From the NCBI GenBank assembly GCA_023253615.1, contig JALRFZ010000429.1, forward strand, positions 1-12,141: a DNA stretch of 12,141 bases, written 5' to 3'. Numbering within the stretch: the first letter of the stretch is position 1; the number at the start of each line of letters is the position of its first letter. Made by a program: the position numbers and the translations under genes. Below the pieces are notes generated by a model. It was not told the DNA's origin, did no database searches, and saw nothing but the letters and a program-made list of their open reading frames with translations. Below are positions 934-12,141 of this stretch, piece by piece. Origin of the DNA: Verrucomicrobiales bacterium. GTDB lineage: Bacteria; Verrucomicrobiota; Verrucomicrobiia; Verrucomicrobiales; DEV007.

Positions 934-2553
934 ATGAATCGTCTCTCCCTACTCGCTCCGCTCTTCGCCCTGCTCGCACTGACCTCCGGCCAGGCCGCCG
1001 GAGAGACCTCCGCGAAACCCGCTCCGAGGCCGAATATCGTCTTTTTCTTCTGCGACGACCTCGCGACCCAGGCCATCAGCGCCTACGGGCACAAGCTCGG
1101 ACTGCTCGAGACGCCCCACATGGATCGTCTCGCGAAAGAGGGCATGCTCTTCGAGCGGTGCGTCGTGCCGAATTCGATCTGCGGACCGAGCCGGGCCGTC
1201 ATCCAGACCGGAAAATACAGCCACCTCAATGGATTTTACCACAACGGGAGCCGCTTCGACGGATCCCAGCAGACTTTCGTGAAGCTCCTCAAGGAAGCCG
1301 GCTACCAGACCGCGGTGATCGGCAAATGGCATCTCGTGAGCGACCCGGTGGGCTACGATCACTGGCACATCCTCCCCGGCCAGGGCGCCTACTACAATCC
1401 GCCGATGATCCGGGACGGCGAGCAGGTGAAACACCACGGCTACACCACCGACCTCATCAGCGAATTCTCGATTGAATGGCTCAAACAGCGCGACAAGACG
1501 AAGCCCTTCCTCCTCATGACCCAGCACAAGGCGCCCCACCGCGAATGGGCGCCCGCCCTGCGCCACCTCGGTTGGAACGGTGATCGCGAATTCCCCGAAC
1601 CCGCGACCCTCTTCGACGACTACTCCGGCCGTGGCATCGCCGAACTCGAACAGGACATGACCCTCGCGAAGACCTTCACGGAACGCGATGCGAAGCTCAT
1701 CCCCACCCCCGGCCTCACTCCTGAACAACTCGCGCAGTGGAATGCCTACTACGAGCCGCGCAACGCGGCCGTCGCGGATCTTTCCGGCAAGGAACTCGTG
1801 CGTTGGCGCTACCAGCGTTACATGCACGACTACCTCGGCACGGTGAAGGCCGTCGACGAGGCAATGGGCGCGTTGCTCGACACCCTCGAGGCCGAAGGCA
1901 TCGCCGACGAGACCCTCGTCGTGCTCTCGTCCGACCAGGGCTTCTACCTCGGCGAGCACGGCTGGTTCGACAAACGCTGGATCTACGAGGAGTCGCTGAC
2001 GACCCCGCTCGTCGCCAGCTGGCCGGGCGTGATCGCACCCGGCGCGCGCGGCGAGGGCATGGTCTCGATCATCGATTTTCCCGAAACCTTTCTCGAGGCG
2101 GCAGGCCTGCCCGTGCCCGACGACATGCAGGGCCGGAGTCTCATGCCTTTCTTCCGATCCGGCGGAAAAGCGCCCGACGACTGGCGCACCAGTTTCTACT
2201 ACCACTACTACGAGTATCCCGGCCCCCACAGCGTGCGGAAACACTACGGTGTCGTCACGGGCCGCTACAAGCTCTTCCACTTCTACGAGCCCGAAACGAA
2301 CTACTGGACCCTGATCGACCGCGAAAAGGACCCTGACGAAATGACCAACGTCTACGGCAACGGCGATTATGCCGCCGTGCAGGCGGAGTTGCACGCCGAG
2401 CTCGAGCGCCTCCGCGCCGAGCTGAAAGTGCCCGAGCAGGATGCCCCGGAATCCTACCTGCGCCCCGGTCAAGGCGGCGGCAAGGGGAAAGGAAAAGGGA
2501 AGGAGAAAGCCAAGGAAAAGGCCAAGGCGCCGCGCGCGGCAAAAGCCGGATGA
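934..2553 (+). CDS. Exported sulfatase (alkaline phosphatase fold) with basic C-terminal tail
   Basis: A 539-residue type I (formylglycine) sulfatase that hydrolyses sulfate esters, probably on a polysaccharide, outside the cytoplasm. Residues 1-22 form a Sec signal peptide. The sulfatase core starts at PNIVFFFCDD (34-42), with metal-binding Asp41/Asp42. C83-G-P-S-R is the canonical C-x-P-S-R motif for conversion of Cys83 to formylglycine. GKWHL (130-134) supplies Lys131 and His133. H202, D334/Q335 and K347 fit the remaining active-site positions; Gln335 stands where many family members have Asn. Residues about 430-500 resemble the usual sulfatase C-terminal subdomain. The last 30 residues are a Gly/Lys-rich tail with 9 Lys. 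The SDQGFYLGEHGW block recalls GlcNAc-6-sulfatase or mucin-desulfating-type enzymes, but the substrate cannot be assigned. Start: ATG 934 opens the signal peptide directly; no Shine-Dalgarno. It converges on the small gene at 2573. Confidence 0.93.
   Translation: MNRLSLLAPLFALLALTSGQAAGETSAKPAPRPNIVFFFCDDLATQAISAYGHKLGLLETPHMDRLAKEGMLFERCVVPNSICGPSRAVIQTGKYSHLNGFYHNGSRFDGSQQTFVKLLKEAGYQTAVIGKWHLVSDPVGYDHWHILPGQGAYYNPPMIRDGEQVKHHGYTTDLISEFSIEWLKQRDKTKPFLLMTQHKAPHREWAPALRHLGWNGDREFPEPATLFDDYSGRGIAELEQDMTLAKTFTERDAKLIPTPGLTPEQLAQWNAYYEPRNAAVADLSGKELVRWRYQRYMHDYLGTVKAVDEAMGALLDTLEAEGIADETLVVLSSDQGFYLGEHGWFDKRWIYEESLTTPLVASWPGVIAPGARGEGMVSIIDFPETFLEAAGLPVPDDMQGRSLMPFFRSGGKAPDDWRTSFYYHYYEYPGPHSVRKHYGVVTGRYKLFHFYEPETNYWTLIDREKDPDEMTNVYGNGDYAAVQAELHAELERLRAELKVPEQDAPESYLRPGQGGGKGKGKGKEKAKEKAKAPRAAKAG
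2461..2550 (+). other. Codons for the Gly/Lys-rich basic tail of sulfatase 1
   Basis: A purine-rich, low-complexity stretch encodes residues 510-539 of the sulfatase at 934. The core GGGKGKGKGK block is followed by EKAKEKAK. The tail carries 9 Lys and 2 Arg against 2 Glu and has no hydrophobic residues, so it should be disordered and strongly cationic. A similar tail ends the sulfatase at 4247-5683. Confidence 0.8.
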
Positions 2554-2846: not shown

Positions 2847-4250
2847 TCAATGGTCCCGGAAAGGTCCCCTCGGCTCGGATTCGTCCATTTCCTTCCTCCA
2901 CGCCGCAAATCGCCCGAGCATCATCCGCAGCACCTCCGGCTTCTCCGTGGACAAATCGTGTTCTTCGGCCGGATCCGCCGCAAGGTCGAAGAGACCCCGT
3001 CCCTTCGCGGATTCGACCCACTTCCATTGCCCGACGCGCGCGGCCTTGTCGCCGCGACGCTGCCAGAACATCTCCGCCCGCGGTGACGCCATCCCGCCCC
3101 GCAGCACCGGGAGCAGGTCGAAGCCATCGAGTTTCAAACCCTCAGGCGCCGGCGTGCCTGTCGCGGCGAGAAGGGTCGGCAGGATCTCGAGAGAGCTGAG
3201 GAATTCATCGGTGACTTTCCCCGCCGGCACCTTCCCCGGCCAGCGCATCAGAAAGGGCACGCGCAGACCACCCTCCCACATCGTCGACTTCGAGCCGCGC
3301 AGCGGGGCATTGCCACCGTTGCCGCTGCCGCCGTTGTCGGAGAGAAAGATCACGATCGTCTCCTCCGTTTCCCCGGCGTCTTCGATCGCCTCGAGGACGC
3401 GTCCGATCGCCGTGTCCATGCGCGTCACGGCGGCGAAATAACGGGCGAGTTTTTCCTCCTTCACGAGGCCGCGGTATTTCGCGACCTCCTCCTCCGGTGC
3501 CTGCACCCCGGGTTTCTCACCGCCGTTGTCTTCGGCGAGGGTCGAGGCGCTGTGCGGGGCGTTGAAGGCGAGGTAGAGAAAAAACGGAGCCTTCCCCGCA
3601 TGCTCTTTCACGAACGCGACGGCTTCGCGCTCGAAGACGCCGGTGACGTAGGTCCCCTTGTCCTCCTCCGTGCGCGCATTGCCGCGGAAGAGCGAGGGAA
3701 TGCCGTAACGCTCGTGCGTGTAGTAGTCGATCCCGTTGTTGCCATGGCCGTAAAAGAAATCGAAGCCGCGCTGCAGCGGCAGGTAACGTTTCGCCTGGCC
3801 CATGTCCCACTTGCCGACGACGCCGTTGACGTAGCCGGACTTCCGCAGGTGATCGCCGATGGTGAGCTCCTTCGGATCGAGGCCGAGGATCATCTCGGGT
3901 GAGACGGCGTATTCTTCCGCGGTGAAGCGGTGGCCGTAATTGACGAGGTCGTTGCGCACCATGTCGTATAGCCCGTTGCGCTGCGGGTACCGTCCGGTGA
4001 GGAGACTGCCGCGCGAGGGCGTGCAGGCGGGCCAGGTGACGTAGAAATTCGTCGCCCGCGTCCCCTCCGCGGCGAGCCGGTCGAGAGCGGGTGTCCGGAT
4101 CGGCTTGATCCCCAGGCAACCGAGGTCCGTCCATCCCTGGTCGTCGCTGATGATGAGGAGGACGTTGGGTTTGTCGTCTCCGCCGACAAGAGTGCCGGCG
4201 TGGAACCAACCTGACAAAACAACCAAAACCGGAAAAATCCCGCGCATCAT
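2847..4250 (-). CDS. Exported arylsulfatase-like sulfatase with Asp in place of the conserved GKWH histidine
   Basis: A 467-residue type I sulfatase of the arylsulfatase A / GalNAc-6-sulfatase-like kind. Residues 1 to about 23 form a Sec signal peptide. The core begins PNVLLIISDDQGWTDLG, with metal ligands Asp36/Asp37. C76-T-P-S-R is the formylglycine motif, followed by LLTGRYPQRNG. Asp305/Asn306 (SDNGG), His233 (NAPHS) and Lys321 (RGSKSTMWEGG) fit the other active-site positions. The usual GKWH motif reads GKWD (147-149), and the codon GAC at 3806-3804 is clear in the sequence. No basic tail is present. Its ATG overlaps the TGA of the upstream sulfatase (ATGA, 4250-4247), so the two are probably translationally coupled in one transcript. 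A second ATG follows immediately, so either could serve as the start. The substrate is unknown. Confidence 0.92.
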   Translation of the reverse strand: MMRGIFPVLVVLSGWFHAGTLVGGDDKPNVLLIISDDQGWTDLGCLGIKPIRTPALDRLAAEGTRATNFYVTWPACTPSRGSLLTGRYPQRNGLYDMVRNDLVNYGHRFTAEEYAVSPEMILGLDPKELTIGDHLRKSGYVNGVVGKWDMGQAKRYLPLQRGFDFFYGHGNNGIDYYTHERYGIPSLFRGNARTEEDKGTYVTGVFEREAVAFVKEHAGKAPFFLYLAFNAPHSASTLAEDNGGEKPGVQAPEEEVAKYRGLVKEEKLARYFAAVTRMDTAIGRVLEAIEDAGETEETIVIFLSDNGGSGNGGNAPLRGSKSTMWEGGLRVPFLMRWPGKVPAGKVTDEFLSSLEILPTLLAATGTPAPEGLKLDGFDLLPVLRGGMASPRAEMFWQRRGDKAARVGQWKWVESAKGRGLFDLAADPAEEHDLSTEKPEVLRMMLGRFAAWRKEMDESEPRGPFRDH

Positions 4251-5818: not shown

Positions 5819-6607
5819 ATGAATCTCCATCTCCAGGACAAGGCCGTGCTCGTTTTCGCCTCCAGCGGTGGCATCGGCCGCGGTGTCGCCACCGAATTCG
5901 CCCGCGAGGGGGCGAAGGTCATGCTCTTCGCCCGCTCCGAAGACAAACTCGCCGCCACGGCCGAAGCGATCGCCGCGGAGACGGGCAATCGTCCGCTCTT
6001 CACCGTCGGCGATCTCACCAACGCGGCTTCGGTACAAGGGGTGATCGATCGCACCGTCGCCGAGTTCGGCGGTCTCTGGGCGCTTTTCAACAACACGGGC
6101 GGGCCTCCGGCGGGCGGCTTCGAGGCGTTTGACGATGCCGCCTGGCAGTCGGCCTTCGAACTCACCACGCTCGGCTACGTGCGCGCGATCCGCGCGGCGC
6201 TGCCGCATCTCCGCGCCGGAGGCGGGGGACGCATCGTGAACAATACCTCCGTCTCGACGAAGCAGGCGATCGATGGACTGCTCCTTTCGAATGTCTTCCG
6301 CAGCGGACTCGTCGGACTCGGGAAAAGCCTCGCCCGCGAGCTCGGCCGCGAAGGCATCCTCGTGAACACGGTGGGGGCGGGACGCATCGACAGCGACCGC
6401 ATCACCGCCCTCGACACGATCTGGGCGGAGAAGGCGGGCATCACCTACGACGCACAACGCGCCAAATCGCAGGCCTCCATCCCGCTCGGCAAGTACGGCG
6501 AACCGGCCGACTTCGCCCGCGCCGTGGTCTGGCTCTGCTCGGGGGCGAACGGTTATGTCACCGGACAGAATCTCCTCATCGACGGCGGGATGACGGAAGT
6601 CTACTGA
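5819..6607 (+). CDS. SDR-family protein lacking the catalytic Tyr-x3-Lys
   Basis: A 262-residue protein with the short-chain dehydrogenase/reductase fold. The start at ATG 5819 (MNLHLQDKAVLVFASSGGIG) puts the first beta-strand near residue 8, as is usual. The nucleotide-binding loop reads ASSGGIG (14-20) instead of T-G-x3-G-x-G. GDLTN (64-68), the NNTGG strand-4 motif (91-95), Ser144 in NNTSVS and the C-terminal VTGQNLLIDGG are all typical SDR features. At the catalytic site the usual YxxxK becomes S157-N-V-F-R161 before SGLVGLGKSLAREL, so both Tyr and Lys are missing. This pattern fits the 'BKR-like SDR-like' group, often annotated 3-oxoacyl-ACP reductase although its chemistry is unclear. 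No signal peptide, so cytoplasmic. It is divergent from sulfatase 3 and convergent with the isomerase-like gene at 6653. Confidence 0.88.
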   Translation: MNLHLQDKAVLVFASSGGIGRGVATEFAREGAKVMLFARSEDKLAATAEAIAAETGNRPLFTVGDLTNAASVQGVIDRTVAEFGGLWALFNNTGGPPAGGFEAFDDAAWQSAFELTTLGYVRAIRAALPHLRAGGGGRIVNNTSVSTKQAIDGLLLSNVFRSGLVGLGKSLARELGREGILVNTVGAGRIDSDRITALDTIWAEKAGITYDAQRAKSQASIPLGKYGEPADFARAVVWLCSGANGYVTGQNLLIDGGMTEVY

Positions 6608-6652
6608 CTTGCGCGACAAAACGCCGTGGGCGGGAGACCCGATCGACCGCCC

Positions 6653-7582
6653 TCACACCGTGCAGATTTCGACGGCCTGCTTCAGCGAGGCGATCTTGTC
6701 TTCCCGCTTGGGGATGAATTCCTGGGCGACCCATCCGGTGTAGCCGGTCGCGACGATCGCCTTCATGATCGCGGGGTAGAAGAGCTCCTGCGTCTCGTCG
6801 ATCTCGGCGCGGCCCGGGACGCCGCCGGTGTGGTAGTGGCTCAAGTACTGGTGGCGCGCCTGGATCGTGGCGATGATGTCGCCCTCCATGATCTGCATAT
6901 GGTAGATGTCGTAGAGCAGCTTGAACCGCTCCGAGCCGACTTTGTCGCAGAGCGCCGCCCCCCAGGAGGAAAGGTCGCACATGTAGTCCTTGTGGTTCAC
7001 CTTCGAGTTGAGCAACTCCATCGTCAGGGTGACGCCGTGTTTTTCACACAAGGGCATGAGCCGTTTCAATCCGACCGCGCAGTTTTCGAGTCCCTGCTCG
7101 TCGTCCATGCCATCGCGGTTGCCCGAGAAACAGATCACGTTGGTGAATCCGGCCGCGGCACTTTCGGCGATGAGCTTTTCGTAGAGGGCGAAAAGGGTGT
7201 CGTGGTGCTCGAGACGGTTGAAGGCGTGGGGAATGGAGCCGACCTTCTTTTTCACGCCGCCGATCTCGACCTCGGCCGAGGGGAAGCTGACCATGGGACA
7301 ATGCATCCCGTGTTTTTTCATCGTCGGGAAATCGGCGGGATCGAGCAGGTCGATCGCTTCGAGTCCGAACTCCTTGCCCGCGGTGCAGAGGTCGTCGAGC
7401 GAGATATCCTTGTAGCACCACTTGCAGGCCGAGTGGTTGATTTTTCCGGCGACACCGGCCTTGGCGGCAGCTTCTTCGGCGAGGGCGAAGCGATCGTGCA
7501 TCGAGGCGGCGACCGCGGCGACGGTCGCGGCACCCGTGGTGGAGACGAAGGATCGGCGGGAAAGGGGGGAAGTTTCGGACAT
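6653..7582 (-). CDS. Tat-exported hydroxypyruvate-isomerase-like / sugar phosphate isomerase (AP endonuclease 2 fold)
   Basis: A 309-residue protein of the xylose-isomerase-like TIM barrel superfamily. It starts with a twin-arginine signal (S8-R-R-S-F-V-S followed by an Ala-rich hydrophobic stretch to about residue 36). It is therefore probably folded and metal-loaded in the cytoplasm before export. The barrel runs from about residue 50 to the end. Candidate divalent-metal ligands are Glu189 (MELLNSK), Asp225 (LLYDIYHMQ), His251 (HYHTGGVPGR) and Glu288 (AQEFIP). The LYDIYHMQIMEGD and HTGGVPGRAEID blocks are close to the hydroxypyruvate isomerase (Hyi) family. The family isomerises or epimerises small sugars and hydroxy-keto acids; the true substrate is unknown. 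Its start lies 65 bp after the stop of the M56 gene, and that gap is filled by a strong inverted repeat. No Shine-Dalgarno. Confidence 0.9.
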   Translation of the reverse strand: MSETSPLSRRSFVSTTGAATVAAVAASMHDRFALAEEAAAKAGVAGKINHSACKWCYKDISLDDLCTAGKEFGLEAIDLLDPADFPTMKKHGMHCPMVSFPSAEVEIGGVKKKVGSIPHAFNRLEHHDTLFALYEKLIAESAAAGFTNVICFSGNRDGMDDEQGLENCAVGLKRLMPLCEKHGVTLTMELLNSKVNHKDYMCDLSSWGAALCDKVGSERFKLLYDIYHMQIMEGDIIATIQARHQYLSHYHTGGVPGRAEIDETQELFYPAIMKAIVATGYTGWVAQEFIPKREDKIASLKQAVEICTV

Positions 7583-7585
7583 GAC

Positions 7586-7638
7586 GGGAATGTAGCGGAA
7601 AAGAGGCCGTGTGACGACTGCGGATTTCCGCTATTCCC
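7586..7638 (-). promoter_or_regulatory. Long inverted repeat directly before the isomerase-like gene (terminator or leader structure)
   Basis: GGGAAT-gt-AGCGGAAA (7586-7601) is matched by its complement TTTCCGCTATTCCC (7625-7638). This gives 14 base pairs with a 2-nt bulge and a 23-nt loop. In minus-strand RNA it begins 9 nt after the stop codon of the M56 gene and ends 3 nt before the ATG of the next gene. The 5' arm can instead form a small hairpin, GCGG-AAAT-CCGC, so two exclusive folds are possible. No U-run follows, so a simple intrinsic terminator is not demonstrated. Confidence 0.55.
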
Positions 7639-7647
7639 GGCGCGGTT

Positions 7648-9801
7648 TCACTGCCGGAAAAGCACCACGGCATCCTCGTCGTAGCGCAATTTCAGATGGG
7701 AGAGCTCGGCCACATAACGCAAGGCCTCGGAGAGCGGGACGTTACGCAAGGTGAGCGTGATCCTGATCTCATCCGCCAGCGGTTCGCCGGGAGCATTGAG
7801 GATCAGATTCAGCCCCTTCTTTTCGGGGTCGAGTTCCAGCGATCGACTCTGCAGGAATTGGAGCGCCCATGGCAGGGGCGTTCCGGCAAATTCCACCTGG
7901 GGTAACACGATATCGGCGGCGACCGTGGCGGATTTAGCTGATGCCTTTTGGGATGGCTGGGCTTCCGCTGCAGGGACGCCTGAAGGCGGACGCATCACCA
8001 CGGCCGCATCTCCGAATTCGAGCTCAAGATTCGACAATTCGGCAAAATATCCCAGCGCCTCAGTCAGGGGAATCTGTTTGAACGAGACGGTGAGTTGCGG
8101 CTCCGGAGCATCAACCGCGGGGATATAAACGAAATTGACTCCCTTCTTCTCGGGATCGAGTTCGCGGACTCTTTCCCGGAGGAAAGCGAGCGCGTCGGTG
8201 AGACTGGCACTTCTCAGTTCGATGGAGGGAATGACGATCTTCTCCAAGCGAGCGCGGGTCAGATCCCCGTCATCTCCCAGTCGAGTCTGCACCGTGAGCA
8301 GGAGCCGCCTGCCGGGGGCGGATGCCTGGCCGGCTTCCGGATTGAGCGAAGTGACCAGCACCGTATCCCCGGACGCGACGGTGAGTTCGGCTTTGAGTTC
8401 GTTCTCCGAGGATGTGGTGGTTCCCCCAACCGTGATCTGTTGGGTTCGATTCGCATGAAGGGCAAGATGGATCTTCCCCTCGGCAAGAGTGGGCTGAACC
8501 TCCAGCCGGGTACCGATGAATCTCGGCTTACCAGCCTCGTCCGGCTTGGGTGTGCCAATCTCGATGACGGCCTTTCTTCCTGACAAAGTCAACACGGAGG
8601 GGGCGCTCAACACGTCGGCTCCCGGAATCGCAGCGATTTGGTCAATCACGCCGGAATCTCCAGCAAAGACGGAAGATCCCTTCTCCGGGTCATAGGTTAT
8701 TCCTTCCGACTTGATTTCGATTGGTCGATCGGCCGGTACTTCGATGAACTTCGCCTCGATCAGAATCTGCTGGCCGCCCGCAACGGCGGGTTCGTTCTGG
8801 GCGCGGGTTGCTCCTGCGAACCCGATCGCGAGGAGCAGCCCGGGACCGGCGAAGTTCCACACCGGACTTGCCCGGCGATGTCCGGCGATCGCGGTGATGC
8901 GCCAGGAAAGGAGACCGCCCCTCCCGAAAAGTCCCACCAGTCCCAGGAATCCGAGGCGCCAGGGCTCGGGATGCGCCGCCCGTTCCACCTTGAGCAGCGC
9001 GTGACCGTATCGCGAACGATCATCCCCCTGGCAGCCCGCGAGCACGGCGCTATCACAGGCCAGTTCGCGGTCGGCGCGGAAACGACGGAAGGCAAACCAC
9101 ACCAGCGGATTGCACCAATGCAGCGCCAGCAGGCATACGACGAGCCCGTTCACCACCAGATCGCCGCGTTTCACGTGGTTGAATTCGTGCAGGAGGATCA
9201 GTCGCCGCTCCTCCCGGTCGAAGGTCTCCTCGAAGGATGCCGGCAGCAGCAGGAGTGGGCGCAGGACGCCGGTCATTGCCGGACCTGGCACCGCAGCCGA
9301 AAGCAGAACCCGCGGGACGCGTCGCAAGCCGCACGCTCGCGCCGCATCCTGAATCTCGCGATGGAGTTCCACCGGAAGGGGCGGCGATCGACGCCGGAAA
9401 CCAGCCAGGGCCGCCGCACAGGAGATCACACAGATGAGCATCGCGAGGATCGCTCCCGACATCCAGATCCATCCCGCCACCGTGGTCCAGGGAACCGGCT
9501 GACGTTCAGGTGCGGAATCCATCGGCAGGGCGGGAGCCGCGGATTCCGCCGGAATCAGTTCGGTCGCAAAGGAGACCGGAGCCGAGCCGGGCGCGGTCCA
9601 TCCATTCTCGATGCTCAGCGGGCTCGGAGGCAGGACGGGAGAGCCGAGAACAAACAACACCGGCAACCACAGCGCGTGTCGCCACCCGGCCGGCATTCTT
9701 TTGCCCAAGGCGATCTGCACGAGCAGGACGGCGAGAATGAGGAGGGATCCCCGCGTCGTGGCGGAGAGAAACCAGTCAAAGACAGCGTCGATGGTGTGCA
9801 T
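7648..9801 (-). CDS. M56 (BlaR1-type) membrane metalloprotease fused to a secretin-like domain and two STN-like repeats
   Basis: A 717-residue membrane protein. Segments at about 18-33, 41-57, 108-134 and 215-237 surround an M56 peptidase core. The zinc motif is H205-E-F-N-H209 (KRGDLVV follows), with E246-L-A-C-D250 as the expected downstream ligand region. A further membrane segment (about 316-333) leads outward. Residues 344-506 match the secretin core: QQILIEAKFIEV, LSAPSVLTLSGRKAVIEIG, GTRLEVQPTL and VASGDTVLVTSL. Residues 522-604 and 631-717 are two copies of an STN-like domain. BlaR1 itself ends in a penicillin-binding domain, which is absent here. By analogy the protease should inactivate the adjacent BlaI-like repressor when its outer module detects a signal; the signal is unknown. 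It starts 1 nt after the repressor's stop (TGA-C-ATG), so translation is probably coupled. Confidence 0.88.
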   Translation of the reverse strand: MHTIDAVFDWFLSATTRGSLLILAVLLVQIALGKRMPAGWRHALWLPVLFVLGSPVLPPSPLSIENGWTAPGSAPVSFATELIPAESAAPALPMDSAPERQPVPWTTVAGWIWMSGAILAMLICVISCAAALAGFRRRSPPLPVELHREIQDAARACGLRRVPRVLLSAAVPGPAMTGVLRPLLLLPASFEETFDREERRLILLHEFNHVKRGDLVVNGLVVCLLALHWCNPLVWFAFRRFRADRELACDSAVLAGCQGDDRSRYGHALLKVERAAHPEPWRLGFLGLVGLFGRGGLLSWRITAIAGHRRASPVWNFAGPGLLLAIGFAGATRAQNEPAVAGGQQILIEAKFIEVPADRPIEIKSEGITYDPEKGSSVFAGDSGVIDQIAAIPGADVLSAPSVLTLSGRKAVIEIGTPKPDEAGKPRFIGTRLEVQPTLAEGKIHLALHANRTQQITVGGTTTSSENELKAELTVASGDTVLVTSLNPEAGQASAPGRRLLLTVQTRLGDDGDLTRARLEKIVIPSIELRSASLTDALAFLRERVRELDPEKKGVNFVYIPAVDAPEPQLTVSFKQIPLTEALGYFAELSNLELEFGDAAVVMRPPSGVPAAEAQPSQKASAKSATVAADIVLPQVEFAGTPLPWALQFLQSRSLELDPEKKGLNLILNAPGEPLADEIRITLTLRNVPLSEALRYVAELSHLKLRYDEDAVVLFRQ
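7651..7911 (-). repeat. Second STN-like domain repeat of the M56 protein
   Basis: Encodes residues 631-717 (IVLPQVEFAGTPLPWAL... to the C-terminus). It shares the LELDPEKKG-(V/L)-N block, P-L-(T/S)-EAL, Y-x-AELS and AVV(M/L) with the first copy at 7990-8238. More than 30 of about 83 aligned residues are identical. The shape resembles the secretin/TonB short N-terminal (STN) domain. Confidence 0.75.
7990..8238 (-). repeat. First STN-like domain repeat of the M56 protein
   Basis: Encodes residues 522-604 (IVIPSIELRSASLTDAL... to VVMR). It is separated from the second copy by a Ser/Ala/Pro-rich linker of about 26 residues. This suggests internal duplication of one domain. Confidence 0.75.
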
Positions 9802-9802
9802 G

Positions 9803-10198
9803 TCAGGATTTCCGGCGGAGGTTTTTCTTCACGGATTCGTCGAGGAGTTGTTTGAGTTGGTCGATCTCTTCGGCACTGAGATTCGACCGCTTCGCGAAAT
9901 GGACCAGCAGGGGTTGCGCGGCCCCTTGGAAAACGCGTTTCAGGAAGGACTCGCTCTCCGCCCGGACCATCGCGTAGCGCGCAAAGGCCGGAGAAAACTC
10001 GCGCACCCCCGCCTCGTTCTCGCCGGAGAGGATCGCGCCCTTTTCAACGAGACGGCTCAGCATGGTGCGAACCGTATTCACCGCCCAACCCGTCGATGGT
10101 TGCAGGACTTTGGCAACCTCCGAAGCGGTCTGCGGAGCCCGCTCCCAGAGCGCCTCCATCAAGGTCCACTCGGCTTCTGAAATACTCGGTGCGTTCAT
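9803..10198 (-). CDS. BlaI/MecI-family winged-helix transcriptional repressor
   Basis: A 131-residue repressor. The N-terminal winged helix (about residues 5-75) starts ISEAEWTLMEALWERAPQTASEV and has the family's recognition-helix block GWAVNTVRTMLSRLVEKGAI (37-56). The C-terminal helices (about 77-130) form the dimerisation part: FLKRVFQG, QPLLVHFAKRSNLSAEEIDQLKQLL. In staphylococcal BlaI/MecI, cleavage occurs between Asn101 and Phe102 within an NFAK-like segment. The aligned place here is His100-Phe101, so a similar inactivation site is plausible. It is the first gene of an operon with the M56 protease, with only 1 nt between them. Two matching operator dyads lie 14-48 bp upstream of its ATG, so autorepression is expected. 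No Shine-Dalgarno precedes the start. Overall length and layout are normal for the family. Confidence 0.93.
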   Translation of the reverse strand: MNAPSISEAEWTLMEALWERAPQTASEVAKVLQPSTGWAVNTVRTMLSRLVEKGAILSGENEAGVREFSPAFARYAMVRAESESFLKRVFQGAAQPLLVHFAKRSNLSAEEIDQLKQLLDESVKKNLRRKS

Positions 10199-10207
10199 CC
10201 GGGTGCA

Positions 10208-10235
10208 TCATTACATTTGTAGTGCCGCAAGTCAA
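10208..10235 (-). promoter_or_regulatory. Candidate promoter of the repressor-protease operon
   Basis: On the minus strand, TTGACT (10235-10230) resembles a -35 box. A 16-bp spacer follows, then TAATGA (10213-10208) as a possible -10 box. The -35 lies between the two operator dyads and the -10 overlaps the proximal dyad, which is ideal for repression. Transcription would start near 10201, only a few nt before the ATG at 10198. Confidence 0.4.
10212..10221. promoter_or_regulatory. BlaI-type operator dyad, repressor-proximal
   Basis: TACATTTGTA is a TACA-N2-TGTA dyad, the core pattern recognised by BlaI/MecI repressors. It lies 13 bp upstream of the repressor's ATG and overlaps the candidate -10 box. 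Confidence 0.8.
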
Positions 10236-10236
10236 C

Positions 10237-10246
10237 TACAAATGTA
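10237..10246. promoter_or_regulatory. BlaI-type operator dyad, esterase-proximal
   Basis: TACAAATGTA is the exact reverse complement of the first dyad, centred 25 bp away. With one more base on each inner side the pair forms perfect 11-bp inverted arms (10212-10222 and 10236-10246). Both dyads are also followed by the same GTGCC on the plus strand. The esterase start codon is 51 bp downstream. Confidence 0.8.
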
Positions 10247-10297
10247 GTGCCATAAATGATCTTGCCAAACCGCGCCAATTCCTTCACAACGCTCCCC

Positions 10298-11212
10298 ATG
10301 AAGCTCGGCCCACTTCTTCTCGGATGCGTCTTCCTCGTTTTCCCGGAGGCCCGTTCCCGTGAGTGGACCTCCACCGACGGCCGAAAGCTCGAAGCCGATT
10401 TTGTTTCCGCTACCGGGGATTCCGTCATCGTCAAGCGCGCCGCGGATGGGCGCAGCTTCACACTGCCGTTGAAAGGCCTCTCCGACGCCGACCAAACCTG
10501 GGTGAAGGAAGAGTTGGCGAAAAATGCCAAACCGGTCGAGGGACCCTACGCCACACTCCTGACGGGCGAGTGGGCCTTATCCGAAGACGACGGCCTGCCC
10601 TTCGCCCTCTTTGGCGCCAAGGATCTCGATGCGTCGAAGAAGTATCCTCTCGTCGTCGGACTTCACGGACGCAGTCAGAATGCGGAGAATGGCAAGCAGC
10701 TTGGTCCATTCTCGAAATCCTTCTCCGAACCAGGCCGCTACGAAAAGAATCCCTGCATCATCCTGGCACCCCTCGGCTATCAACCCTTCGGCGGCCAAGG
10801 CACCGCTTGGAGCAACGAACCCGGCACGAAAACGCTCGCCCTCATCGAAAAACTGATCGAGAGCCTGCCCATTGATGGAAACTGCATCTACGTCGTCGGA
10901 TATTCGATGGGTGGGTTTGGCGCCTGTCATTTCGCCGTCACCGAACCGAAGCGATTCGCCGCGGTCGTCGCGGGCGCCGGTTGCACGGGAGTGGATTCGG
11001 CCGATGTCTTCAAGCGCCTTCCCTTGTGGCTCCATCATGCGGCGGATGATCCGACCGTGGAGGTCCGCTACTCGCGAGACCTCGCCGAAGCCTTGAAACG
11101 GTCGGAGACGATGAAATATACCGAATACCCGACCGGAGGACACGGCATCGCCGGCACGATTTTCAACGACGACGCCGTGCACGAGTGGATTTTCCAACAG
11201 CGACGCGAGTGA
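10298..11212 (+). CDS. Secreted SHD1-domain alpha/beta-hydrolase (esterase/PHB-depolymerase-like)
   Basis: A 304-residue exported hydrolase. ATG 10298 is chosen because it opens a Sec signal peptide (MKLGPLLLGCVFLVFPEARS); an in-frame ATG at 10256 would add a polar leader. Residues about 20-70 form an SLA1-homology domain 1 (REWTSTDGRKLEADFVS... LPLKGLSDADQTWV), a module common in secreted planctomycete and verrucomicrobial proteins. Residues about 95-304 form the hydrolase: an oxyanion-side LHGRSQNAENG stretch, the nucleophile elbow G201-Y-S203-M-G, Asp250/251 in HHAADDPTV, and His282 in TGGHGIAG complete a Ser-Asp-His triad. The fold resembles phospholipase/carboxylesterase and feruloyl-esterase-like enzymes, acting on an ester or possibly a peptide bond; the substrate is unknown. 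It diverges from the repressor gene across the double operator, so it is a candidate member of that regulon. Confidence 0.9.
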   Translation: MKLGPLLLGCVFLVFPEARSREWTSTDGRKLEADFVSATGDSVIVKRAADGRSFTLPLKGLSDADQTWVKEELAKNAKPVEGPYATLLTGEWALSEDDGLPFALFGAKDLDASKKYPLVVGLHGRSQNAENGKQLGPFSKSFSEPGRYEKNPCIILAPLGYQPFGGQGTAWSNEPGTKTLALIEKLIESLPIDGNCIYVVGYSMGGFGACHFAVTEPKRFAAVVAGAGCTGVDSADVFKRLPLWLHHAADDPTVEVRYSRDLAEALKRSETMKYTEYPTGGHGIAGTIFNDDAVHEWIFQQRRE

Positions 11213-11240
11213 GATCGGCATCGCGGCGGCGGAAAAGCGC

Positions 11241-12141
11241 TCAGCGCTGTGCCTCCAGCTCGCAATCCTCCTCGGCCCGGACGCGTTCGCCGGCCTTGTC
11301 GACGGGATGGGTGAAGAGATAGCGCCAGACGTCTTCGTGGATGAGCTTGCCTTCGGCATCCTTCACCGCCGCGCCGCCGGGCACGGAGGCGTTGTGGGCG
11401 CGGTTGGCGTCGTTTTTCACATCCGCGTTGGTGATGAGACGGCGCGAATTTTCGTAGGGCGGCTTCACCGCGTCGACATCGACGAGGGGACCGAATTCAT
11501 TCAAGCCGAGAAGAATCCACGAGCGGCAGTAGTGATCGGCGGTCCAGCCGCCGTCGAGGACGTGGGTGAAGCCGAAGTAGCGGTTCGCCGGGGTCGCGGA
11601 TTTCATTTCCTGCCAGGTCTCGGTGTTGTCGCGCGGACCGGAGAACATCACGACGCGATCGACCTTCTGATGGATCGCGAACCGGGCCGCGGTGGTGCTG
11701 CCGTGCGAGATCCCTGCCAAAACCACCTTTTCCCAGTCGAGTTCCTTTCCATCGCGGGCGATGAACTGATCCCAGTCGCCCTGGCGGTTTTCCTTGTCGA
11801 GCCACTTCACGAACCGGAAGGCGCGCTCCTTCAGCCCGTCGGGCTGCGGGATCTCGACGATCGGGCTGTGATCCTCGCCGGTGGCGGCTTCGAGACGGAT
11901 CTTGCCGAGGGTGTCGCCGTCGTTGAGCTGCTCCTTGGTGAGTTTGGAAAACCAGCGGTTCGCATAGCTGACCTGGAGGTAGTGCATGCCGTAGCTGTTG
12001 ACGCGCTCGGCGAGACCGGCGTTGTGATCCATCAGCCAGATCACGAGCTTGCCCTGGGATTTCACGTCGGTGTCGATGGAGGCGTACTGGAGATCGCGCG
12101 GCTTGCCCTTGTCGTCGGTGAAGACGAAGTCGATCGCGGGA
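11241..12141 (-). CDS. Alpha/beta-hydrolase-type protein, BPSS1187-like (5' end outside window)
   Basis: The frame is open from the right edge (12140) to the stop TGA at 11243-11241, giving 299 visible residues; the N-terminus is missing. A GTG at 12063-12065 could be read as a start. The 25 residues before it (FVFTDDKGKPRDLQYASID...) continue the same fold smoothly, so the gene is better treated as truncated by the window. The G-I-S-H-G elbow has its candidate nucleophile Ser at codon 11708-11706, inside VVLAGISHGSTTAARFA. A later RAHNASVPG block could hold the catalytic His. The VVMFSGPRDNTETW and VLDGGWTADHYCRSW blocks are distinctive. I recall them from proteins annotated 'BPSS1187 family', but this is from memory and moderately uncertain. 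It converges on the SHD1 esterase with 28 bp between the stops. Function and substrate are unknown. Confidence 0.75.
   Translation of the reverse strand, partial: PAIDFVFTDDKGKPRDLQYASIDTDVKSQGKLVIWLMDHNAGLAERVNSYGMHYLQVSYANRWFSKLTKEQLNDGDTLGKIRLEAATGEDHSPIVEIPQPDGLKERAFRFVKWLDKENRQGDWDQFIARDGKELDWEKVVLAGISHGSTTAARFAIHQKVDRVVMFSGPRDNTETWQEMKSATPANRYFGFTHVLDGGWTADHYCRSWILLGLNEFGPLVDVDAVKPPYENSRRLITNADVKNDANRAHNASVPGGAAVKDAEGKLIHEDVWRYLFTHPVDKAGERVRAEEDCELEAQR

What the first reader, a model, noticed from the sequence alone, without database searches (positions are those of the whole stretch)
7648..9801. BlaR1-type protease whose sensor part is a secretin-like domain plus two STN-like repeats
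Seen: an M56 HEFNH core between membrane segments, then a secretin-core pattern (ILIEAKFIEV ... SAPSVLTLSGRKAVIEIG ... GTRLEVQPTL ... SGDTVLVTS), then two homologous domains of about 85 residues. Known: BlaR1/MecR1 carry a C-terminal penicillin-binding domain, and secretin and STN domains normally belong to outer-membrane secretion pores and TonB receptors. Inference: the extracytoplasmic part senses an envelope partner such as a secretin, a TonB-like protein, peptidoglycan or a glycan, and relays this to the protease. An inner-membrane protein carrying only the secretin core is unlikely to form a pore, so re-use of the domain for sensing or docking is more plausible. I do not know this architecture as a described sensor class.
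Basis: partly seen in the sequence, partly recalled or inferred. Interest (0 to 1): 0.78.

Follow-up and report, generated by a model that had tools for sequence, protein, structure and literature searches.

The report
Membrane protease with swappable secretin-like sensor
This bacterial gene pairs a BlaR1-like membrane protease with a repressor it probably cuts, but its sensor is built from pieces of secretion-pore proteins that probably cannot form a pore and that appear to be swapped between bacteria by recombination, so it may detect something variable rather than an antibiotic.

Summary
The gene is on the minus strand (7651-9801, 717 aa). It has an intact M56 zinc-protease half that folds like BlaR1. 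A secretin-core domain follows, lacking the gate and lip insertions, then two STN-like domains. This order (secretin, then STN) is the reverse of true secretins. Both recur in relatives, so this is probably a BlaR1/BlaI-type proteolytic switch with a new sensor and no penicillin-binding domain.

The unexpected result is that the sensor is mosaic. Against a same-genus genome, the repressor, divergent esterase and protease half are 94-98% identical (dS about 0.05). The sensor between them is about 50-76% identical by domain (dS 0.7-1.7), and similarity returns at the very C-terminus. Each allele was seen in a second sequence record. A comparison with another genus shows a different exchanged tract. 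The type IV pilus secretin, the obvious partner, is 93.5% identical between the same two genomes, which argues against species-specific sensing of it. No paper on this architecture turned up in my searches. Ligand and targets remain unknown.

The parts
7651..9801 (-). M56-secretin-STN-STN receptor protease gene (717 aa); stop codon at 7648-7650
8962..9801 (-). N-terminal half (residues 1-280): membrane helices and M56 zinc-protease domain
9175..9189 (-). HEFNH zinc motif (residues 205-209); with E246 and D250
   Evidence: H205, E206, H209, E246, D250 identical in 65 of 65 aligned relatives (65 of the 108 proteins at hand were aligned)
8797..8868 (-). last membrane helix (residues 312-335) ending in GATRA|Q, a signal-peptidase-like site
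   Evidence: Model helix 315-330; G330, A331, T332, A334, Q335 invariant in 26 close relatives, kept in 56, 30, 49, 52 and 31 of 65 in the wider set. S. aureus BlaR1 is cut by SpsB at a like place (PMC9834060, passages)
8272..8772 (-). secretin-core-like domain (residues 344-510), without gate hairpins and lip
7984..8256 (-). first STN-like domain (residues 516-606)
7651..7920 (-). second STN-like domain (residues 628-717)
   Evidence: STN E 4.4e-4; Amuc_1098 family
7762..8961 (-). segment (residues about 281-680) that differs as an allele from genome G012
   Evidence: flanks dS about 0.04-0.11; by domain inside dS 0.72-1.68
9803..10198 (-). BlaI/MecI-type repressor gene (131 aa), one base upstream of the receptor; F101 aligns with the P1' Phe of the BlaI cleavage site
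   Evidence: Penicillinase_R E 6e-29; MecI/BlaI structures E 4e-14 to 1e-11; site N101-F102 from PMC9834060 (passages)
10212..10221 (.). operator TACAAATGTA (read on the minus strand), copy nearer to blaI
10237..10246 (.). operator TACATTTGTA (read on the minus strand), copy farther from blaI; 25 bp centre to centre
10207..10235 (-). sigma-70-like promoter TTGACT-17-AATGAT, overlapping the nearer operator and touching the edge of the farther one
   Evidence: consensus match only: 2 sites found in 641 bp, 0.1 expected

Best explanation
It is a BlaR1/BlaI-type proteolytic switch with a replaceable sensor. The BlaI-like dimer binds two operators at its own promoter and represses blaI and the receptor gene (shown: the sites and a promoter-like match; inferred: binding). 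The receptor sits in the inner membrane with its zinc protease facing the cytoplasm and its C-terminal secretin-core/STN/STN part in the periplasm (topology inferred by homology to BlaR1). When the periplasmic part binds its ligand, a movement is passed through the last helix to the protease. The protease then cuts the repressor near F101 and the operon is derepressed (inferred). The sensor is made of secretin pieces in permuted order without pore-forming insertions, and it is exchanged by homologous recombination while the protease half, repressor and operators stay fixed. The likeliest ligand is therefore a variable protein or other structure in the envelope or arriving from outside, bound by the variable secretin-core domain, with the more conserved STN domains serving as docking or relay parts (inferred).
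Against: No binding, cleavage or induction was tested. No target gene besides the operon itself was found. Strict operators (ACTACANNTGTARW) lie only at BlaI-M56 loci in five of the six carrier genomes, and the sixth (G071) has none. Over the 74 genomes searched the reversed control pattern was commoner than the pattern itself (58 against 20 on the forward strand, my tally), so site counts elsewhere carry no signal; the case for the operators rests on their place, pairing and conserved spacing. The divergent gene differs between loci. A variable ligand is inferred only from sensor variability. dN/dS of SEC is below 1 overall (0.27 versus G012; 0.55 versus G059), and the one stretch with more amino-acid than silent change is not significant (p 0.36). 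The AU-tested group and the 441-606 tract were chosen after seeing the data. Only one core gene was used as the yardstick of genome divergence.
Confidence: 0.6

Rival explanations
1. The receptor reads the assembly state of the cell's own type IV pilus (Amuc_1098-type) or type II secretin by like-with-like docking of STN and secretin domains, and reports envelope or pilus stress.
For: The sensor's closest named relative is the Amuc_1098 family (E 2.5e-35). The same genome holds an Amuc_1098 equivalog (979 bits, cut-off 750) beside Amuc_1099 and Amuc_1100 homologues, which shares the STN repeat with the sensor (61% over residues 629-672). All 6 genomes with the receptor have that secretin.
Against: That secretin is 93.5% identical between G000 and G012 and 95% between G000 and G005, yet the SEC domains are 50% and 45% identical. 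The receptor is in only 6 of 74 family genomes; whether non-carriers have the secretin was not searched.
Confidence: 0.2
2. A FecR-like relay: the STN-like domains dock with the STN signalling domain of a TonB-dependent outer-membrane transducer, and the protease output replaces the anti-sigma output.
Against: No transducer was seen among the window ORFs scanned with Pfam; neighbours in the other loci were not annotated, and I did not search the genomes for STN-bearing receptors. It does not explain the more variable secretin-core domain.
Confidence: 0.12
3. The sensor is variable only because it is weakly constrained, and the allele swap is a side effect of ordinary recombination around a mobile regulatory gene pair.
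For: The pair is patchy (6 of 74 family genomes), sits at different places, and its neighbourhood shows recent transfer (dS 0.05 against dS 1.5 in the one core gene tested). SEC dN/dS is below 1.
Against: The domain keeps invariant positions (12 of 167 in 26 relatives). Variation is higher in the loops 360-394, 417-429, 450-463 and 484-497 (mean entropy 1.7-2.1) than in base turns (0.6-1.4) (loops picked after seeing the profile), and swaps recur in different tracts.
Confidence: 0.2
4. Assembly artefact: the window's gene is a chimera of two strains.
For: The window comes from a draft genome (802 contigs, 84.7% complete, 4.65% contamination).
Against: Each allele is found in a second record: P0002 is 99-100% identical to the window from the last helix on and 95-97% before it; P0013 is 99% identical in SEC to G012. 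The frame is open throughout. How independent the source samples of P0002 and P0013 are is not known.
Confidence: 0.03

Closest known systems
BlaR1/MecR1 with BlaI/MecI (Staphylococcus aureus)
   Same: M56 fold and HEXXH...E, repressor gene next to it, paired dyad operators at the promoter (the staphylococcal operators are recalled), conserved Phe at the repressor cleavage site, signal-peptidase-like site after the last helix
   Different: no penicillin-binding sensor; sensor made of secretin core plus two STN-like domains; no beta-lactamase or PBP gene among the window ORFs scanned; sensor alleles swapped by recombination
Amuc_1098 family type IV pilus secretin (NF042912)
   Same: closest named sequence relative of the sensor (E 2.5e-35): STN-like repeats and secretin core
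   Different: true secretin has STN before the secretin core, the gate and lip parts, and an outer-membrane location (PilQ immunogold, PMC4960237, passages); here the order is reversed, those parts are missing and it is fused to a protease
FecR-type anti-sigma regulators
   Same: inner-membrane regulator with a periplasmic STN-like domain (4m0n match; FecR facts recalled)
   Different: here the output is a zinc protease and a BlaI repressor, not a sigma factor
Other M56-STN proteins without the secretin core
   Same: M56 plus one to three STN-like repeats (15 of 108 proteins)
   Different: lack the secretin-core domain

Membership tests
BlaR1/MecR1 beta-lactam sensors | M56 protease with HEXXH...E between membrane helices | tested here: met
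BlaR1/MecR1 beta-lactam sensors | BlaI/MecI repressor gene adjacent, with dyad operators | tested here: met
BlaR1/MecR1 beta-lactam sensors | C-terminal penicillin-binding sensor domain | tested here: not met
   Pfam finds secretin/STN there instead; blaR1_generic 125.5 bits against cut-off 400, best stretch residues 19-274
BlaR1/MecR1 beta-lactam sensors | cuts BlaI on signal | not testable with these tools
   cleavage-site Phe aligns; no assay
Secretins (PF00263) | secretin core sequence and fold | tested here: met
Secretins (PF00263) | gate hairpins and VPxLGDIPxLG lip region needed for a pore | tested here: not met
   both absent from the family profile aligned to three solved secretins; structural names of the stretches recalled
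Secretins (PF00263) | N-domains precede the secretin core | tested here: not met
   order is M56-SEC-STN-STN; 13 of 108 proteins have STN before SEC, none of these with M56
Secretins (PF00263) | outer-membrane location | not testable with these tools
   inner-membrane helices predicted by homology to BlaR1 and by the model; no experiment
Amuc_1098 family (NF042912) | score over the curated cut-off of 750 bits | tested here: not met
   121.8 bits
STN domain (PF07660) | score over gathering threshold | tested here: inconclusive
   20.4 bits against 28.4 on the last repeat; fold agrees for the first repeat and many relatives have PF07660 precomputed
PADLOC anti-phage systems | match to a defence-system model | tested here: not met
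   no match for the receptor at E 0.01; BlaI only 14.1 bits to KwaB

The most novel reading that the evidence does not exclude
A recombining receptor system: a fixed BlaR1-type protease/repressor module in which evolution swaps pore-less secretin-derived sensor cassettes, as in polymorphic recognition systems, to detect a variable attacker or partner that engages the envelope through secretin or pilus machinery (for example filamentous phage secretins or pilus-targeting phages or toxins). It would be a bacterial surveillance receptor built as a decoy of the machine it guards.
Probability: 0.15. Interest if true: 0.85.

Novelty: new variant of a known kind. Interest (0 to 1): 0.62.

Why it matters
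BlaR1-type receptors are known mainly as antibiotic sensors. This family suggests that the same protease/repressor output is wired to a sensor built from secretion-pore parts, with the pore-forming pieces removed and the domain order reversed. The recombination pattern gives a direct handle on what is sensed: two natural alleles on a nearly identical background can be compared for ligand binding, and the swap boundaries mark where sensor and protease can be separated.

Tried and rejected

Regulon search: TACAWWTGTA and a longer form in the own genome and ACTACANNTGTARW in 74 family genomes found, in the carrier genomes, only sites at BlaI-M56 loci (five of six carriers; G071 has no strict site, its two sites each have one mismatch). 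The reversed control pattern was commoner than the pattern over the 74 genomes (58 against 20 forward hits, my tally), and sites in non-carrier genomes were not followed. Weaker sites cannot be told from chance.

Conserved neighbours as effectors: rejected. The TIM-barrel gene next door is in 21 of 33 genus genomes, the receptor in 4 of 33. Of the 18 TIM loci outside the three linked ones I fetched 9 (L149-L157); 0 of 9 hold the pair within the 10 kb read. One of these is G005, which carries the pair elsewhere. The esterase is divergent from blaI only in the window and G012 among the loci compared.

Paralogue at C118 (L003) as a second secretin-like sensor: a motif looks similar, but hhalign gave probability 0.7%; not claimed.

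Positive selection: residues 441-500 versus G059 have more amino-acid than silent change per site but p 0.36; not claimed. The 441-606 tract test counts codons 516-520 twice and leaves out 607-627. Defence-system models: no match for the receptor.

A second-secretin comparison G000/G012 picked wrong reading frames (28 aligned codons) and was discarded. Several longest-frame translations (L077, L078, L008) were wrong frames and were not used. The align_proteins one search failed for a wrong frame and was not repeated. An earlier count said 5 of 33 genus genomes carry the receptor; the table shows 4 of 33, plus 2 in other genera of the family. Families not shown in fold lists are not taken as absent. 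Literature: one search matched 768 papers (12 listings seen, looking incidental), one search matched 13 (10 seen, incidental), one search matched 5 and one; none of these was opened.

Full report

Not a pore. In the alignment of the family profile to three solved secretins (ExeD, PilQ, XcpQ), two stretches are missing: 32-44 residues after the EAxxxEV strand (gate hairpins) and about 24 residues containing VPLLGDIPxLG (lip region) (the structural names of these stretches are recalled). The order secretin-then-STN is the reverse of secretins. Of 108 proteins (query plus 107 hits), 70 have M56, then SEC, then STN; 15 have M56 with STN only; 13 have STN before SEC and no M56; 5 are SEC-STN without M56; 5 are STN only (HMMs trained on the same set). 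Independently, 62 of the 107 hits carry precomputed Pfam M56 plus Secretin (my tally).

The partner. A BlaI/MecI-like gene (9803-10198, minus) ends one base before the receptor starts (Penicillinase_R E 6e-29; MecI/BlaI structures). Upstream lie two TACANNTGTA sites 25 bp apart; none was found in 200 shuffles of the window. They lie at a promoter-like match TTGACT-17-AATGAT. Among 12 loci with relatives of the receptor, 10 have both sites with at most one mismatch (7 spaced 25 bp, 3 spaced 23); L018 and L019 have a different repeated palindrome, read by eye. L014 was left out of that count because its repressor gene is cut by the contig end. A BlaI-like gene precedes the receptor in 11 of 11 of L010-L020 (recognised by sequence, not each scanned with Pfam). 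The Phe at the known BlaI cleavage site (N101-F102, PMC9834060, passages read) aligns with F101 here and is kept in 10 of 12 repressors. H205, E206, H209, E246 and D250 are identical in 65 of 65 relatives (65 of 108 proteins were aligned, chosen by me). A GATRA|Q sequence ends the last helix, resembling the place where signal peptidase cuts BlaR1.

Mosaic sensor. The closest neighbourhood fetched is G012 (L117), same genus, with the same gene order TIM-barrel / receptor / BlaI / divergent esterase. BlaI is 97.7% identical (dS 0.04), esterase 98.4% (dS 0.05), receptor residues 1-280 94% (dS about 0.05). From about residue 281 to 680 identity falls: last helix 76% with dS 0.88, SEC 50% with dS 1.27, STN1 61-63% with dS 1.55-1.68 (two boundary choices), STN2 74% with dS 0.72. 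The last 37 codons are back at 92% with dS 0.11. Within 6651-12141, nucleotide identity falls below 90% only between about 7700 and 8900 (5901-6650 did not align). The one core gene tested is far more diverged: the pilus secretin is 93.5% identical with dS 1.50, while the neighbouring TIM gene has dS 0.29. So the locus probably moved recently between these lineages, and it exists with two sensor alleles. Against chimeric assembly: P0002 (a second record) carries the window's allele (SEC 99%, STN 100%), and P0013 (11 member sequences) carries G012's allele (SEC 99%) on a protease half 96% identical to the window's and 98% to P0002's. The protease-half tree groups the four (99/97), and the SEC tree rejects that clade (p-AU 0.00029; group chosen after seeing identities). 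Against G059, another genus, residues 441-606 have silent divergence 0.083 while both sides have 0.38 (p 4e-12, segment chosen after seeing the data). Protein pairs show more mixing, for example P0011/P0016 (M56 89, SEC 87, STN1 68, STN2 76) against P0011/P0015 (91, 81, 92, 98). Over all 325 pairs, however, domain identities still correlate (M56-SEC 0.81, M56-STN1 0.69, M56-STN2 0.73), so swaps sit on a background of shared descent. Variability in 26 close relatives is highest, among the folded domains, in SEC (mean entropy 1.45; protease 0.93, STN 1.00 and 0.93). The loop 61-104 and the linker 607-627 vary more still (2.09, 2.04). Within SEC it is higher in 417-429, 450-463, 484-497 and 360-394 (1.7-2.1) than in base turns (0.6-1.4) (loops picked after seeing the profile). 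That these loops lie on one face is an inference from secretin topology.

Distribution. 6 of 74 family genomes and the same 6 of 386 order genomes carry a close relative (E thresholds 1e-60 and 1e-90); 4 of 33 in the genus. The window's genome is thus in Verrucomicrobiota, probably near Akkermansiaceae (inference). More distant relatives occur in Verrucomicrobiaceae and other records.

What it senses. The own genome has an Amuc_1098 equivalog next to Amuc_1099 and Amuc_1100 homologues. That secretin is nearly constant where the sensor is not (G000/G005: 95% against SEC 45%). I therefore think that species-specific reading of the pilus secretin is unlikely, though a conserved contact through the STN domains is not excluded. 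No target genes were found. Strict operators lie only at BlaI-M56 loci in five of the six carrier genomes, and G071 has none. Over 74 genomes the reversed control pattern was commoner than the pattern, so counts of sites elsewhere carry no signal. The divergent gene next to the operators is an esterase in the window and G012 and something else elsewhere. The signal, the targets and the cleavage step are inferences.

Literature. Searches for M56 with secretin, BlaR1, Verrucomicrobia, TonB, sensor domain or domain architecture, and for BlaR1 or BlaI with Planctomycetes or Verrucomicrobia showed no paper on this architecture; judged from listings, and for from 12 of 768 matches. PMC9834060 and PMC4960237 were read as passages. 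PMC7593790 was seen only as a listing.

Noticed in passing
G000 C118 (L003 1052-1498 and 1693-3297; L122): A second BlaI-M56 pair with one TACAAATGTA operator near the repressor and a different, unassigned C-terminal part; the match to the receptor holds one in-frame TAG.
   Followed up: partly
G000 C220 (L002 1068-3027; L123): A third BlaI-M56 pair whose tail is Pro/Glu/Arg-rich and, by eye, holds an ExbD-like stretch; Pfam found only M56.
   Followed up: partly
L018 and L019, upstream of blaI: These relatives have a repeated palindrome around GCTAAAATTTTAGC (by eye) in place of TACANNTGTA, suggesting a different repressor specificity.
   Followed up: no
window 934-2553 (+), 2847-4250 (-), 4247 to about 5600 (-): Three sulfatase genes (PF00884 E 3.5e-40 to 7.7e-62), two of them with overlapping ends.
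   Followed up: no
window 10256-11212 (+): Secreted-looking esterase-like gene, divergent from blaI and next to its operator region; 98% identical in G012, about 85% and not adjacent in G015.
   Followed up: partly
G000 C796, C793, C327 (L004, L005, L009): Short secreted-looking proteins with one or two STN-like repeats and no secretin core seen by eye; possible partners of the sensor.
   Followed up: no
window about 6650-12141 versus G012 L117: The neighbourhood (dS 0.05 to 0.3 in the genes measured) is much more alike than the one core gene tested (dS 1.5), so a multi-gene tract probably moved recently between the two lineages.
   Followed up: partly
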